From positions 1-64,000 of IMG/VR virus record IMGVR_UViG_3300037156_000058: 64,000 bases of DNA, one strand, 5' to 3'. The position numbers were made by a program, and so were the translations under genes. Below the pieces are notes generated by a model, which was not told where the DNA came from, did not search any database, and saw only the letters and a list, made by a program, of their open reading frames with translations. Each line of letters opens with the position of its first letter. The first letter of the stretch is position 1. The DNA comes from a virus. This document shows positions 1 through 53,212 of the stretch, piece by piece.

Positions 1-1
1 C

Positions 2-535
2 GCCACACCCCCGGACCCGCCCGGCCGTACCTCCGACCTCGAGGTATCCGCCCCGGCCGCGACGCGGCTGGACCTGAGCGGCTGTACCGGACTCACCGAG
101 GTATCCGCCCCGGCCGCGACGCGGCTGTACCTGAGCGGCTGTACCGGACTCACCGAGGTATCCGCCCCGGCCGCGACCTGGCTGGACCTGGGCGGCTGTA
201 CCGGACTCACCGAGGTATCCGCCCCGGCCGCGACCACACTGTACCTGAGCGGCTGTACCGGACTCACCGAGGTATCCGCCCCGGCCGCGACCTGGCTGCA
301 CCTGAGCGGCTGTACCGGACTCACCGAGGTATCCGCCCCGGCCGCGACCGTACTGAACTTGAGCGGCTGTACCGGACTCACCGAGGTATCCGCCCCGGCC
401 GCGACCGTACTGGACCTGAGCGGCTGTACCGGACTCACCGAGGTATCTGCCCCGGCCGCGACGCGGCTGAACCTGAGCGGCTGCAATCCGAACCTGAAAA
501 TCACAGCCAGAAAAGGCGCAAGGATATGCCTATGA
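2..535 (+). CDS. Leucine-rich-repeat protein, C-terminal part
   Basis: Frame is open from the left window edge to TGA at 533-535, so the start is missing. The product is almost wholly eight tandem 19-residue units (codons from 41 to 496) of the form EVSAPAATxLxLSGCTGLT, followed by a short basic tail ending ARICL. The L-x-L-S-G-C-x-x-L pattern matches leucine-rich repeats, in which the residues flanking the Leu of xLxL face the concave ligand-binding surface. Only those positions vary between units. A role in protein-protein recognition (host surface, host defence or virion decoration) is inference. The stop overlaps the next start (ATGA), which suggests translational coupling to two tiny membrane peptides. 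Confidence 0.75.
   Translation, partial: ATPPDPPGRTSDLEVSAPAATRLDLSGCTGLTEVSAPAATRLYLSGCTGLTEVSAPAATWLDLGGCTGLTEVSAPAATTLYLSGCTGLTEVSAPAATWLHLSGCTGLTEVSAPAATVLNLSGCTGLTEVSAPAATVLDLSGCTGLTEVSAPAATRLNLSGCNPNLKITARKGARICL
41..496 (+). repeat. Eight in-frame 57-bp tandem repeats (LRR array)
   Basis: Units begin at 41, 98, 155, 212, 269, 326, 383 and 440. Apart from the last unit's end, units are nearly identical, including synonymous sites. The changes cluster at codon 9 (CGG, TGG, ACA or GTA), the last base of codon 8, and the first base of codon 11, which shows all four bases (GAC, TAC, CAC, AAC). The length is a multiple of three and there are no spacers, so this is a protein repeat and not a CRISPR array. 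Confidence 0.95.
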
Positions 536-710: not shown

Positions 711-1949
711 GTGACAGAAACAATGGAACTGACGGTAGTCAACGCACAGAACGCGGTGCAGATATTTACGGGCGGAGGGCTGGACGCGATCCTTGCCGGG
801 ATCGAGGGTCAGGTCCGGGCCATGACTTTGGATGGATCGACCTCGGATGGCCGGGACAAAATCCGTTCCGTGGCCTACAAGGTCGCGAGGACGAAAACGG
901 CCCTCGACTCCGAAGCGAAGAAACTCACTGAGGGCTGGCGGACTGCCACCGGCCAGGTGAACGCCGAGCGCAAGCGAGCGCAGGAACGGCTCGACGCACT
1001 GGCCGAGGAAGTTCGCGCGCCTCTGACCGCGTTCGAGAGTAAAGAAAAGAATCGCACTGCGGCGCACGAGGTGGCGTTGGCGGAGATGACGATATTCTCT
1101 TCGATCCAGTCGCAGGCAACAGCGGAAGAATTGGAAGAGGCGGTGCTGAAGTTCGCCGGACTGCATCAGGGCCGGGACTGGGAAGAGTTTGCCTTCCGCG
1201 CCAACCGGCAGCGCGTTGAGATCGGCGCTTATTTAGATAAGAGACTGGCCGACCGCAAGCAGTTCGACGCAGACCAAGCTGAACTGGCGAGACTCCGTAA
1301 GGCAGAGGCGGAGCGTATGGTCCGGGAGCACGAACAGCGCCTGAAGACCGAAGCGGCGGAGACGGCCAGACTCGAAGAGCAGCGTAAGGCCAAGGAAGCG
1401 TCGGACGCCGAGGCGCGGCGCGTGATCGAAGCCGCGCGGAAAGAGCAAGAGCGGGTCGCTGCAGAAGCGGAGCGCGTGCGCGTGGAGAATGAACGGGCAC
1501 AAAAACAAGCGGAAGCCGCGCGTAAGTCTGAGCAGGACGCACGCGAACTGGCCGAGCGACGGGTGATCGAGCAGGCAGAAGCCGCGAAGAAAGAACAGGC
1601 GCGGTTGGTCGAGTTCGCGGAAAAAGCCAGAGCCAAAGCGGCACTCGACCTGAAGGCCGCGCAGGCGAAGGCAGCCGAAGATCTGAAGGCCGCGAACCTG
1701 AAGGCCAAGAGCGACGCCGAAGCGGCAGTCGCGAAAGAGAAAGCGCGGGTGGAGGCGCTGCGCAAGGATCTCGCAGAGGCGCAGGCTAAGCGCGAAGCCG
1801 ACCAAAAGAACCGGGCTCAAGTCCGCAGGGAGATTGATGCCGACCTGGAAAGCGTATTCTCCGGGCTGGGGCTGGACTGTTTGGCCGCGGGCGCTATCGC
1901 GGATGCCATCATGGACGGCAAGGTACGCCACGTGCGAGTGATTTTTTAG
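711..1949 (+). CDS. TolA-like coiled-coil phage protein (DUF1351-like)
   Basis: 412 residues. The N-terminal 100 residues (IFTGGGLDAILAGIEGQV, SVAYKVARTKTALD, NAERKRAQERLDALAEEVR) match by eye the widespread phage proteins annotated as TolA-like or DUF1351 that sit next to recombination genes. Residues about 180-370 are a long Ala/Glu/Lys/Arg-rich coiled coil. A GTG start at 711 follows a strong GGAGG site inside the previous stop region. A Sak4-type ATPase lies two genes downstream, so a role in phage recombination or nuclease control is plausible but unproven. Confidence 0.65.
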   Translation: MTETMELTVVNAQNAVQIFTGGGLDAILAGIEGQVRAMTLDGSTSDGRDKIRSVAYKVARTKTALDSEAKKLTEGWRTATGQVNAERKRAQERLDALAEEVRAPLTAFESKEKNRTAAHEVALAEMTIFSSIQSQATAEELEEAVLKFAGLHQGRDWEEFAFRANRQRVEIGAYLDKRLADRKQFDADQAELARLRKAEAERMVREHEQRLKTEAAETARLEEQRKAKEASDAEARRVIEAARKEQERVAAEAERVRVENERAQKQAEAARKSEQDARELAERRVIEQAEAAKKEQARLVEFAEKARAKAALDLKAAQAKAAEDLKAANLKAKSDAEAAVAKEKARVEALRKDLAEAQAKREADQKNRAQVRREIDADLESVFSGLGLDCLAAGAIADAIMDGKVRHVRVIF

Positions 1950-17343: not shown

Positions 17344-20172
17344 TTACTGGCACATGAAGCTCCAATGTCCGAGAATAGCGCTGGTTCCCCCGGAGGATGT
17401 CACTTTGACTCCTATGCGGTCGCCTTTAGTGATCGTTCCCGTACTGCTCGAATCAAGCAATATGACCCCTGCGGAAGTACCGGCGCTGATAGTTCCACTC
17501 ATAAGCGTTGTGTCTGATGTTCCAGTGGAGCCCATGTCCACAACCGATATAGTGGTGGTTACGCCACCTGTCTGTGTTCCTGCAAGGGTAAGTTGCAGGT
17601 ACGTGGCAGAACAACCACGCGGGAACGCCACAAAAGCATAAGGCTCCGTCCCATTGCTATATCCACCAAACGGAGCGTAGTAAGTAGTGCTTGCATTAGT
17701 TCCCTCAATCGCTCCCTGCACAATGAATGCCGAGCCGGACGCGGGGGTTATAGACACTCCGAATTCTGTTAGTGAAGGAACCGTCGCAGCGCCCGGCTCG
17801 AACTCCATATCAATATAATGCCCTTGACTAACCGATACGGTATGAGTTAGATCAGCATAGGCGGCAGGGCTTGTGTCTGTTGTTGCCGGGGTAACGGTTA
17901 GGGTTGTTCCAAGCCCGTTGTCATTCATCACCGGGTTTACCGTGAAGACGTTCGTGGGAGCCGTTGTGTGCGAGTACATTAAAGCCTGCATGGTTCCCGA
18001 GAAGGGAAGCGGCGTGGCGTACTCCAGTTCGGTGGGTCCACATCCACCGGAAAAGCCGCAATATGCAACCGTGCTGGCGGTCATGGCAAATGCTTTTGCA
18101 TTCGTCAAGACCGAAGTCATAAGCCCGCTGTCGGCTAAAAACTCCGCAGTTATGCCACTTATATTAGGAGTGCCCCCGGAATTTTGCTTAGCCGACGCAA
18201 ACCCCCACTGCGATCCTTGATCTTCATGCCAATACAATGCGTTTGATTGCGTATAAGAGCCTACTCCAGCATTGGGCTGCACTATCACTCCACCGGGAGA
18301 CGTTCCGTTTATGGCGCTTCCGAATCCGGATGCCGCACAATCTACATCAGCCCCGAATCGTAAAGATGAACCAGCATTAGCAGCAGGAAGTGATATCGCT
18401 ACGTTCCGAAAGTACCCGGCTGATGGCCATTGCAAAACTGACCCTGAGGCCTGACATGGCGACGACCCGCTTGCTGCGACAGTCCCTGGCCAATAATTCC
18501 CATTGCCGGAAAAAAGGTTTCCGTATCCGACAATACTCCCAGATGCCGTTGACGATGGCCCTGTAGCGCACGTCGGGCAGGCAATAGTGCCAGCTGAAGT
18601 GATCGGGCCGCCGGTGATTGGTCCGGTTGTGGCGACACTGGTTACGGTTCCAGACCCACCACCACCCCCATTCAAGAGTGTCCATGCCCCGGTCGCCACG
18701 GACGTGCAGGCGGGAGCAGCCGTTCCGCTGGCCGCTGCACACCAGTAATCGTTATGGTTTGTCGTGTCAGAGAACAGATCACCAGGGAGATTGCCCGTTA
18801 CGCTGCCCGGTGCAGCAGTGCCAAAGAATTTCTGAGCCAGAAGTGTTTTATCCGCCGCGCATGTACCGCTGGTTGTGATCGCACCGCCCGTTAGGCCGCC
18901 ATTGCAGGTGATGCTAGATATTCCGCTCCCGGCAGCCCCGGTTGCACCTGTAGCCCCGGTTGCACCTGTAGCGCCCGTGGCTCCATTAGCCCCGGTCTGA
19001 GAAATGTAGTAGTTCGCTCCATCCGGTGCGACCTCAACCAGAAATCGTGGGCACCCGCCGGCTGCGGTACAGACTGCAATCGGACCATAAGCGGCTTGCC
19101 CGTTCGCCGTCGCTCCATTCAACCCCACGGCTAAAGTCTGCGTCTGCGACTGATTCATGATCGCCAGCTTGCAATTCGTTCCGCCGAGGGTGATAGCCGA
19201 CGCAGGGAGTGAGAACGTAAGGCCGCTGCCTGAGAAGGGAATCGTAGACCCGCAGTCCGATGCCTGCGCCGTGTAGTTGGTGGTCTGCACAGCCTCAACC
19301 GCCGTGGCAATCCCCTGCGGCCCAGCGGGGCCGACGCTGAGAATGTTGAATTGAGTCCCGTCATAGCCGAGGTTGTAAAGATTCCCTGTTCCGGCTCCGA
19401 CCGTAATCGTGTTGAGGGCCAGAGGAGCACCCGCGCTGTAGATATTCTTCGCTCCCAGCGTCGATATATCGAGCGTGGCCGCGCCGCTGTTGTTCACGTC
19501 AACCTTCAGGCTCACGGTCATGCCTGCCGTATAGGATGTAAGGGCTGGTGACGGCGTGCAGGTATAAGTAGTCGCGCTGGATGATGCTGTTTGGCAGTAG
19601 GTGCCGCCTGTGACGGAACCCCCTCCCCCACTCAGCACCTGATAGTTCGCGCCGTCGCTGAAAACCTGTTTGCTGGTGTGTGCGGGAACCGTCAACACGC
19701 TGCCGCTGATGTCTGCTGTTGGGCCACCATAGAACGTGCTCGTGGTCGCGGTGACTGTGAGAGAGCCCGCGCCGATATTGTTCACTACTACAAACCAGCC
19801 CGCCGCGAATCCCGTCGTGCCGGCCTGCGCGATGGTCCACGCCGCTGCCGTGTTCGTGGTCAGGGATGTACCGCAGTCGCCCGTCACAATTGGGTAGGAA
19901 CCATTGTGCGCGGCAGTGGCAAGCGTTTCGGATGCCGCTGGAGTTGTCGTGCCCGTCGCTACCGAAATACCGCACGATCCGCTAACCGAGGTCACTGTAC
20001 CTGCCGTTGGCGTTGCCCATGAGCATGGCGGCGCCGTTCCGCCAGAATTTGCCTTCAAGACTTGGTTCGTCGTAGCGGAGTTTGTAACGCTCTCGCATGG
20101 ACCTGGATTCTGTGCCATCGCAAGAGCGGATCCGAAGGCCATGAGGGCCAGGAGAATTATTAACCGTTTCAT
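17344..20172 (-). CDS. Tail-fibre-like protein with signal peptide and collagen-like segment
   Basis: 942 residues. ATGA overlap with the preceding gene. The N terminus MKRLIILLALMAFGSALAMA then Q is a textbook signal peptide. The body is Gly/Thr/Ser/Ala-rich beta repeats of fibre type. A collagen-like GAT repeat (GATGATGATGATGATGAAG) lies near residue 400, and TSVATTGPITGGPITSAGTI matches phage fibre repeats. C-terminal domain may bind receptor. A cleavable export signal on a phage fibre is unexpected. Confidence 0.65.
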   Translation of the reverse strand: MKRLIILLALMAFGSALAMAQNPGPCESVTNSATTNQVLKANSGGTAPPCSWATPTAGTVTSVSGSCGISVATGTTTPAASETLATAAHNGSYPIVTGDCGTSLTTNTAAAWTIAQAGTTGFAAGWFVVVNNIGAGSLTVTATTSTFYGGPTADISGSVLTVPAHTSKQVFSDGANYQVLSGGGGSVTGGTYCQTASSSATTYTCTPSPALTSYTAGMTVSLKVDVNNSGAATLDISTLGAKNIYSAGAPLALNTITVGAGTGNLYNLGYDGTQFNILSVGPAGPQGIATAVEAVQTTNYTAQASDCGSTIPFSGSGLTFSLPASAITLGGTNCKLAIMNQSQTQTLAVGLNGATANGQAAYGPIAVCTAAGGCPRFLVEVAPDGANYYISQTGANGATGATGATGATGATGAAGSGISSITCNGGLTGGAITTSGTCAADKTLLAQKFFGTAAPGSVTGNLPGDLFSDTTNHNDYWCAAASGTAAPACTSVATGAWTLLNGGGGGSGTVTSVATTGPITGGPITSAGTIACPTCATGPSSTASGSIVGYGNLFSGNGNYWPGTVAASGSSPCQASGSVLQWPSAGYFRNVAISLPAANAGSSLRFGADVDCAASGFGSAINGTSPGGVIVQPNAGVGSYTQSNALYWHEDQGSQWGFASAKQNSGGTPNISGITAEFLADSGLMTSVLTNAKAFAMTASTVAYCGFSGGCGPTELEYATPLPFSGTMQALMYSHTTAPTNVFTVNPVMNDNGLGTTLTVTPATTDTSPAAYADLTHTVSVSQGHYIDMEFEPGAATVPSLTEFGVSITPASGSAFIVQGAIEGTNASTTYYAPFGGYSNGTEPYAFVAFPRGCSATYLQLTLAGTQTGGVTTTISVVDMGSTGTSDTTLMSGTISAGTSAGVILLDSSSTGTITKGDRIGVKVTSSGGTSAILGHWSFMCQ

Positions 20173-51957: not shown

Positions 51958-52488
51958 ATGCCTATTGGAAAGTATACCCGCAAAATAATTCCGGTCAAAG
52001 ACCGTCTTTTAAGCAAGAGATCCATTCAGCCGAACGGTTGCTGGCACTGGACTGGTCACGTGTCCAGGTATGGGTATGGGAAAATCAACGTCGGCGGCGT
52101 AATCAAACCGGCGCATCGTGTTTCGTATGAGGAGTTCGTCGGACCCATCCCCGAAGGGACGGAGCCAGATCATACTTGCCATGATCCAAGAGAATGTTCG
52201 GGTGGTGTCACATGCCCGCACAGAAGATGCTTCAATCCTGAACACATCGAACCCGTCACGAGAGAAAAGAACGCAAGCCGGGAACGCAGTTGCCATCGCG
52301 CGATAAATCCAGCGGTAATGGCTCTTGGCCAACAAGCCGCTGCTAAGAAAAAGAGAGAGCGAACGCATTGCGTTAACGGTCACGAGTTCACTCCAGACAA
52401 TACAAGCATGAAGGCTGGATATCGTCGCTGTAAGGAATGCCACCGGGAAAGCATGAGGGTCACGCAGCCACCTTCTCCCGCTTCATAA
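51958..52488 (+). CDS. HNH endonuclease on the opposite strand
   Basis: 176 residues from ATG 51958 with AAGGA 8 nt upstream; an ATG at 51886 is less likely. NGCWHWTGHVSRYGYGKINV, a strand pair typical of phage HNH_3-type nucleases, then DHTCHDPREC, HRRCFNPEHIEPVT (the HNH core with Zn-binding Cys) and a C-terminal HCVNGHEFTPDNTSMKAGYR zinc finger. Flanked by minus-strand genes and reading out of phase with them, as expected for an intruder gene. Confidence 0.85.
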   Translation: MPIGKYTRKIIPVKDRLLSKRSIQPNGCWHWTGHVSRYGYGKINVGGVIKPAHRVSYEEFVGPIPEGTEPDHTCHDPRECSGGVTCPHRRCFNPEHIEPVTREKNASRERSCHRAINPAVMALGQQAAAKKKRERTHCVNGHEFTPDNTSMKAGYRRCKECHRESMRVTQPPSPAS

Positions 52489-53212
52489 TCACCTTAGTAT
52501 AAATCCTGTGAACAGCCTGATACACCCATTCACCACCGCTGCGGGTTCGATGCCCTTCGTGATTCAGCCTGTGGGCTATCCAAGGCCACGATTTTTTCTG
52601 TGCGTGAAGATCGGTTATCCGCGCCATGATTTTTTGTTCTTCGGGGTTTTCCAGAAGGGGCTTTCGGATTTTAAGTTCTTTCTCCGCGGCCGTTCTCGGT
52701 TGCGAAGAGTATCCGAACGCGGGAGGCCCTGCCGGAAAACCCTGAGATTTTATATGCTGGAGGACGGACGTGGTCCTCTCGCCAATTGTCTCCCTCTCCC
52801 AAGAGCTTACTGAGGTCATTATGTTGAGTACGAGACGCCCCGATGCTGAGTTTGTATCGAGAGAGTCTACAACCGACACCAGGCTAACATCCATCTTTGC
52901 AAATATTTTCAGCAGGTCGTTCAGGTCGCCTACGTTTCTCGTCAGCCTGTCCAGCTTGTATATCGCCACGATATCCACTTCGCCGCGAGCGATCATTTCA
53001 AGCAGGCGCTGCATACCTGGACGCTCCAGTGATTTTGCCGAGGCGTCGGAATCGACTATGGTTTCGATAAGCTCGGCCCCTTTGACTACAGACATGGCTT
53101 CCAGTTTGTGCTTCTGCATATCTAAACTGACGTCTTGCTTGCACGTTGAAACGCGGCAGTACGCAACCATTCGCGGTGTTTTTATATGTGTGTCCATGTC
53201 ATGCTTGAGCAT
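52460..53212 (-). CDS. Serine recombinase (resolvase/invertase type)
   Basis: 250 residues. The catalytic Ser motif AYCRVSTCKQ is at residues about 17-26; IVDSDASAKSLERPGMQRLL, AIYKLDRLTRN and SVSSWERETIGERT follow the family order. The C-terminal recombinase-type HTH is short (WPWIAHRLNHEGHRTRSGGE). Could be the phage integrase, a resolvase, or an invertase acting on the fibre genes. Overlaps the convergent HNH gene by 29 bp. The only recombinase visible, so a temperate lifestyle rests on it. Confidence 0.85.
   Translation of the reverse strand: MLKHDMDTHIKTPRMVAYCRVSTCKQDVSLDMQKHKLEAMSVVKGAELIETIVDSDASAKSLERPGMQRLLEMIARGEVDIVAIYKLDRLTRNVGDLNDLLKIFAKMDVSLVSVVDSLDTNSASGRLVLNIMTSVSSWERETIGERTTSVLQHIKSQGFPAGPPAFGYSSQPRTAAEKELKIRKPLLENPEEQKIMARITDLHAQKKSWPWIAHRLNHEGHRTRSGGEWVYQAVHRIYTKVIMKREKVAA

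What the first reader, a model, noticed from the sequence alone, without database searches (positions are those of the whole stretch)
41..496. LRR array whose eight near-identical units differ almost only at exposed codons
Seen: eight 57-bp in-frame units with conserved framework, even at silent positions, and variation clustered at codon 9 (Arg, Trp, Thr, Val) and the first base of codon 11 (Asp, Tyr, His, Asn: all four bases), both flanking the xLxL strand. Known: in LRR proteins these residues face the concave ligand surface (as in lamprey variable lymphocyte receptors). Inference: a recently expanded, recombining phage recognition protein, whose diversity is made by repeat shuffling or targeted mutation. 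No reverse transcriptase of a diversity-generating retroelement was seen in the window.
Basis: partly seen in the sequence, partly recalled or inferred. Interest (0 to 1): 0.75.

Follow-up and report, generated by a model that had tools for sequence, protein, structure and literature searches.

The report
Phage LRR protein with recombining, diversifying repeats
The window starts inside a phage gene for an undescribed protein family that joins one constant start domain to a string of near-identical repeats, and the repeats differ almost only on one exposed face, the signature of a fast-changing binding surface such as those of fungal and vertebrate recognition proteins.

Summary
Window 41-496 holds eight 57-bp in-frame LRR units. 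Every amino-acid-changing difference between complete units falls on the three outward-facing codons of one strand. The missing upstream part lies at the other end of the 68,691-bp virus record: the contig broke inside the array. The whole gene encodes a constant ~95-aa N-domain, at least 11 units and a C-cap.

The N-domain matches nothing in Pfam, PHROGs, NCBIfam, PADLOC or PDB sequences. I found it in about 50 phage or prophage loci, before a repeat tract wherever the contig continues: 19- or 21-aa LRRs, or 8-9-aa beta-solenoid repeats in gut phages. Pooled over 14 LRR arrays, amino-acid changes exceed silent ones (213 to 28), with 61% on three codons where 16% is expected. Near-identical phages differ by whole units or by a crossover inside a unit.

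Targeted mutation by a reverse transcriptase is not supported: no RT in 19 phages, and the pattern does not fit. 'Recognition protein' stands as inference, but the gene sits in the early recombination module, not with tail genes. I read it as an intracellular adaptor, possibly counter-defence, whose surface evolves as in Podospora HET-D/E or PRDM9. The ligand is unknown.

The parts
1..40 (+). contig-end remnant of a further repeat unit (in frame, C-rich mismatches; sequencing error or degenerate unit)
   Evidence: 26/40 bases match the unit consensus in frame, random windows mean 10.5
41..496 (+). eight 57-bp (19-aa) LRR units, EVSAPAATxLxLSGCTGLT
   Evidence: TRF; unit table; Pfam LRR_1/LRR_4; position statistics
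481..535 (+). C-terminal cap CNPNLKITARKGARICL and stop; same cap motif in relatives L009, L019, L021, L022, L025
   Evidence: translations
711..1949 (+). downstream early gene (phrog_1376, unknown function); its first ~104 bp are duplicated (91%) upstream of the array gene at record 66502-66605 (L007:3003-3106)
   Evidence: The array gene's own N-terminal part lies outside the window: N-domain at record 68271-68558 and further units to record 68691

Best explanation
The array is the variable half of an early, intracellular phage protein: a constant ~95-aa N-domain, a solenoid of LRR units, and a C-cap. Shown by computation: the units stay near-identical in DNA; copy number and order change by recombination between units and between paralogues in relatives; amino-acid changes concentrate on the outward residues of one strand per unit, next to a conserved inward residue. 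Inferred: homogenisation keeps the units recombinable while diversifying selection keeps the exposed ladder variable, so the phage can rapidly remake a binding surface against a changing partner, most likely a polymorphic host protein such as a defence component, with the N-domain as the constant effector or anchor.
For: N-domain and array joined across the record ends. Family in about 50 phage/prophage loci, with a repeat tract wherever the contig continues. Same exposed codons vary in independent arrays with different silent frameworks; pooled 14 LRR arrays 213 N to 28 S changes, 26% S expected, p about 1e-8, and 129.5 of 213 N changes on 3 strand codons; short-unit arrays show pS = 0 in six of thirteen. 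Strand 1 is variable-inward-variable and strand 2 invariant in the model. LRR fold. Recombination: L029 gene 2 crosses over inside an identical 63-bp unit from paralogue 2 to paralogue 5 of L066; L058/L059 flanks 99.98% identical, arrays differ by two units; up to five paralogues in one phage. Early module context.
Against: No ligand, no expression and no functional data. The window's own array alone has pN/pS 0.56. Short-read assembly could create or hide unit changes, including the L029 chimaera. Several arrays (L064, L088, L093) show ordinary silent divergence. The counts treat related units as independent. Early-module location does not exclude a virion role. Host defence as the partner is a guess.
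Confidence: 0.5

Rival explanations
1. Neutral coding minisatellite: slippage and unequal crossover expand a tolerant solenoid, and exposed residues vary because they are less constrained, with no recognition role.
For: Copy number varies and units are near-identical; the window's own array has no overall N excess; inward residues would be conserved by folding alone.
Against: Relaxed constraint cannot give N rates above S rates, yet pooled arrays show 213 N to 28 S and individual arrays reach pN/pS 12 or pS = 0 over 13-18 units. Other exposed positions, such as strand 2, hardly vary.
Confidence: 0.2
2. Receptor-binding or other virion recognition protein, diversifying to track host surface receptors.
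For: LRR solenoids bind ligands through this face in many proteins; the nearest fold matches include bacterial internalins.
Against: Lies after exonuclease VIII in the early module and on the strand opposite to the structural genes; relatives sit with YqaJ, ERF, SSB and AAA_24 or near a repressor.
Confidence: 0.1
3. Modular binder of a repetitive ligand or nucleic acid (TALE- or PRDM9-like code), tied to the neighbouring recombination genes.
For: Two-residue toggles per near-identical unit; repeated proximity to recombination genes.
Against: No nucleic-acid-binding fold or charge pattern was shown; residue choices (Asp, Tyr, Asn, His, Arg, Trp, Thr, Val) do not suggest a DNA code; solenoid classes differ between relatives.
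Confidence: 0.1
4. Diversity-generating retroelement target or other enzyme-targeted mutagenesis.
For: Codon 11 shows all four first bases.
Against: No RVT_1 in 19 phage records while the control rings; codon 11 base 2 is A in every unit; silent and non-adenine changes occur.
Confidence: 0.03

Closest known systems
Podospora anserina NWD/HNWD recognition genes (het-d, het-e WD repeats; PMC1805685)
   Same: Near-identical repeats under concerted evolution within and between paralogues; positively selected codons in pairs around a conserved one, on the interaction surface.
   Different: Eukaryotic NACHT protein with WD40 beta-propeller repeats; no sequence relation claimed.
PRDM9 zinc-finger minisatellite (PMC8925151)
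   Same: Coding minisatellite with variable copy number, concerted evolution, positive selection on contact residues.
   Different: DNA-binding zinc fingers in vertebrates; target known.
Lamprey variable lymphocyte receptors (PMC3900441)
   Same: LRR solenoid with variable ligand-facing strand residues.
   Different: Somatic assembly by gene conversion with cytosine deaminases; secreted or membrane receptor.
Bacterial short LRR proteins (internalin J, SspH2, IpaH, YopM; BspA-like 4fd0)
   Same: Predicted fold: VIA Z 13-15 over about 190-230 residues.
   Different: 19-aa unit, near-identical DNA units, unrelated N-domain, phage early gene.
TAL effector repeats (from general knowledge)
   Same: Near-identical units differing at two adjacent exposed residues.
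   Different: Helical 34-aa repeats that bind DNA; not tested here.

Membership tests
Leucine-rich repeat proteins | LRR profile match and LRR solenoid fold | tested here: met
   Pfam LRR_1 28.3 bits and LRR_4 28.4 bits over their cut-offs for the window part; AlphaFold model of ortholog L021 with all top matches LRRs
Leucine-rich repeat proteins | Variable residues outward on the parallel strand | tested here: met
   Strand is S-A-Y/Y-A-D, the two variable residues around an inward Ala, by DSSP strand position in the model
N-domain family (this work) | N-terminal domain with MC.F.S, K, DSH and DQD..P.W motifs | tested here: met
   Own record 68271-68558, E 1.3e-47; no match in Pfam, PHROGs, NCBIfam, PADLOC or PDB sequences
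N-domain family (this work) | The window array and the N-domain belong to one gene | tested here: inconclusive
   Both record ends lie in the same array, same frame, with family N-domain and C-cap; tandem paralogues in relatives leave two genes possible
Diversity-generating retroelement targets | Reverse transcriptase in the genome | tested here: not met
   0 of 19 records with RVT_1; some records may be fragments
Diversity-generating retroelement targets | Substitutions at template adenines | tested here: not met
   Codon 11 second base A invariant; changes at other bases
Podospora-type recombining recognition repeats (works like) | Exchange of units within and between genes | tested here: met
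   L029/L066 chimaera, L058/L059 unit gain/loss; assembly artefact not excluded
Podospora-type recombining recognition repeats (works like) | Recognition or incompatibility function | not testable with these tools
   needs experiments
Phage tail or receptor-binding proteins | Location with structural genes | tested here: not met
   early module
Variable lymphocyte receptors | Assembly by deaminase-driven gene conversion from cassettes | not tested
   no deaminase was looked for; vertebrate system

The most novel reading that the evidence does not exclude
Phages carry a widespread, previously undescribed family of early recognition proteins in which one constant N-domain is joined to different solenoids, and the binding face is remade by recombination and diversifying selection, in some phages as a repertoire of several tandem genes: a phage counterpart of fungal HET-D/E or jawless-vertebrate receptors, used against host defence or rival phages.
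Probability: 0.35. Interest if true: 0.85.

Novelty: new variant of a known kind. Interest (0 to 1): 0.66.

Why it matters
The combination of concerted evolution of repeat units with diversifying selection on their contact residues is documented for fungal and vertebrate recognition genes. My literature searches found no phage example (open-access library only). If the pattern holds in long-read data, the N-domain gives a handle for finding these genes, and the variable codons point to the binding face, so the partner can be sought directly. It also shows that assemblies break at these genes, so they are under-reported.

Tried and rejected
DGR: no RT in 19 records. Virion protein: context argues against it. 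Relatives in annotated phages by DNA: none; by protein: only three distant gut-type records and BspA-like LRRs. L011-L013 hits are BspA-type LRRs without the N-domain; L010 is a phage protein with 20-aa GCTGLTEV repeats but no N-domain; my unit regex failed on it, so it was not scored. Host search: N-domain in 1 of 399 sampled genomes of the Acidobacteriia-MAG class and 2 of 391 of the Clostridia-MAG class (one weak), so mostly phage-borne. Synteny: no tblastn match of six own neighbour proteins in the flanks of 23 relatives. Free exchange of LRR and short-beta tracts: the N-domain tree needs only 2 such changes, though 16 changes among finer classes, with many weak forks, so I do not claim frequent swapping. 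The first site count was biased by boundary units and replaced. N-domain fold: not folded or searched alone, so no statement on its novelty as a fold. Rfam: nothing in L007.

Full report
Observation. The window begins inside an open frame (2-535, +). TRF finds a 57-bp array at 40-483 with no indels. Aligned units are identical but for codon 9 (Arg CGG, Trp TGG, Thr ACA, Val GTA), the first base of codon 11 (all four bases), one Ser/Gly at codon 13, and three silent sites (codons 3, 8, 12). The third base of codon 8 goes with codon 9 (ACG only with CGG), so a short cassette ACG-CGG, ACC-TGG, ACC-ACA or ACC-GTA is what differs. Pfam scores the frame as LRR.

The missing half. The window is bases 1-64000 of a 68,691-bp virus record. 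The last 133 bases of the record are the same array, preceded by an ATG at record 68271 and a 97-aa N-terminal region. So the contig broke inside the array, and its two ends are the two ends of one gene, or of two tandem copies. The first 40 bases of the window align in frame to a unit with 26 of 40 matches (random mean 10.5), like a corrupted read end or a degenerate unit. At least 11 units exist; the true number is unknown.

The family. Using the N-domain I fetched relatives from viral contigs and bacterial genomes: an Acidobacteriia MAG and several gut Clostridia MAGs among them. The domain matches nothing in Pfam, PHROGs, NCBIfam, PADLOC or PDB sequences. A repeat tract follows in nearly every case where the contig continues: 19-aa LRR units (own, L009, L021, L022, L023), 21-aa LRR units (L028, L055), 18-19-aa GGNLEV types, an Ala-rich type (L031), and 8-9-aa beta-type units in gut phages. 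Many contigs stop just inside the tract. Several phages have two copies and one has five in tandem. On an N-domain tree the LRR types mostly fall together, with 16 changes among eight fine classes but only 2 between LRR and short-beta types.

Pattern of variation. In arrays of different phages the framework uses different silent codons, yet within each array it is almost constant, and the variable codons are the same ones. Counting changes on minimum spanning trees of distinct units in 14 LRR arrays: 213 non-synonymous, 28 synonymous (26% expected synonymous; p about 1e-8), and 129.5 of 213 on the three codons at -6, -4 and -2 from the Cys (16% expected). Arrays from L028/L066/L029 share units, so these counts are not independent. 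Single arrays: L009 13 units pS 0; L066e 15 units pN/pS 12; L055 5; the window 0.56. Short-unit arrays behave alike: pS 0 in L077, L082, L081, L079, L072, L084; not in L064, L088, L093 (the regular expressions used there constrain which amino-acid changes can be seen, but not silent ones).

Structure. The AlphaFold model of ortholog L021 (17-row alignment) has mean pLDDT 94.2 and pTM 0.87. Each unit has two strands. The first is exactly variable-Ala-variable, so the two variable residues point to the same side, away from the inward Ala; the second (EVS) is invariant. Fold matches are LRRs (Foldseek; VIA Z up to 14.8, 231 residues, 4.5 A, internalin J). A gut-type member, L085, gives a similar order of secondary structure in the N-domain followed by a beta-solenoid (pLDDT 90.6) with weak matches to beta-helices and pentapeptide repeats (Z 7-9).

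Recombination. L029 and L066 come from phages about 99% identical. L029 gene 2 follows L066 gene 2 up to an identical 63-bp unit and then continues as the end of L066 gene 5, removing about 4.7 kb. L058 and L059 are 99.98% identical outside the array and differ by 48 bp, two units. L068 has lost most of the N-domain by an in-frame joint into the array. Short-read misassembly remains possible for each.

Context and function. Own gene order: exonuclease VIII (phrog_412), a short frame, the array gene, then phrog_1376, an HNH nuclease and an AAA_24-type ATPase, with helicase and primase-like genes upstream, all on +. The structural genes lie on the - strand from about 14 to 51 kb, with a serine integrase near 52.5 kb. 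Only a few of the structural genes have a family match (tail fibre and virion hits); the rest are assigned by size, order and strand. Relatives lie near YqaJ, ERF, SSB, AAA_24 and DUF3799 genes or after a repressor. Own neighbours were not found around relatives, so the gene seems to move between phages. No RT occurs in 19 records. I therefore read it as an early intracellular binding protein with a fast-evolving face. The partner (host defence, host factor, rival phage) is not known.

Known parallels. In Podospora NWD genes, WD repeats evolve in concert between loci and positively selected codons occur in pairs around a conserved codon on the interaction surface (PMC1805685). PRDM9 shows a coding minisatellite with concerted evolution and positive selection on DNA-contact residues (PMC8925151). 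The phage arrays resemble these in the way they evolve; membership in those families is not claimed.

Noticed in passing
window 717-820 and L007:3003-3106 (record 66502-66605): A 104-bp stretch, 91% identical, starts both the gene after the array (phrog_1376) and a short truncated copy before it, flanking the array gene on both sides.
   Followed up: partly
L066:2087-7806, L028:4965-8452: Five tandem paralogues of the repeat gene in one ~90-kb phage; one has a frameshift in the N-domain and one (L066:4798-5118) has its frame end after the N-domain.
   Followed up: partly
L022:8794-9681, L068:9032-9375: A second repeat region with 24-bp periodicity about 3.5 kb downstream of the LRR gene in the same phages.
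   Followed up: no
L010:4755-6158: Phage protein with near-identical 20-aa GCTGLTEV repeats, variable at similar strand positions, but with a different N-terminus.
   Followed up: no
window 18934-18996: 18-bp tandem repeat (AGCCCCGGTTGCACCTGT) inside a large predicted gene on the - strand.
   Followed up: no
window 52460-53212 (-): Serine recombinase (integrase-like, phrog_95), suggesting a temperate phage.
   Followed up: no
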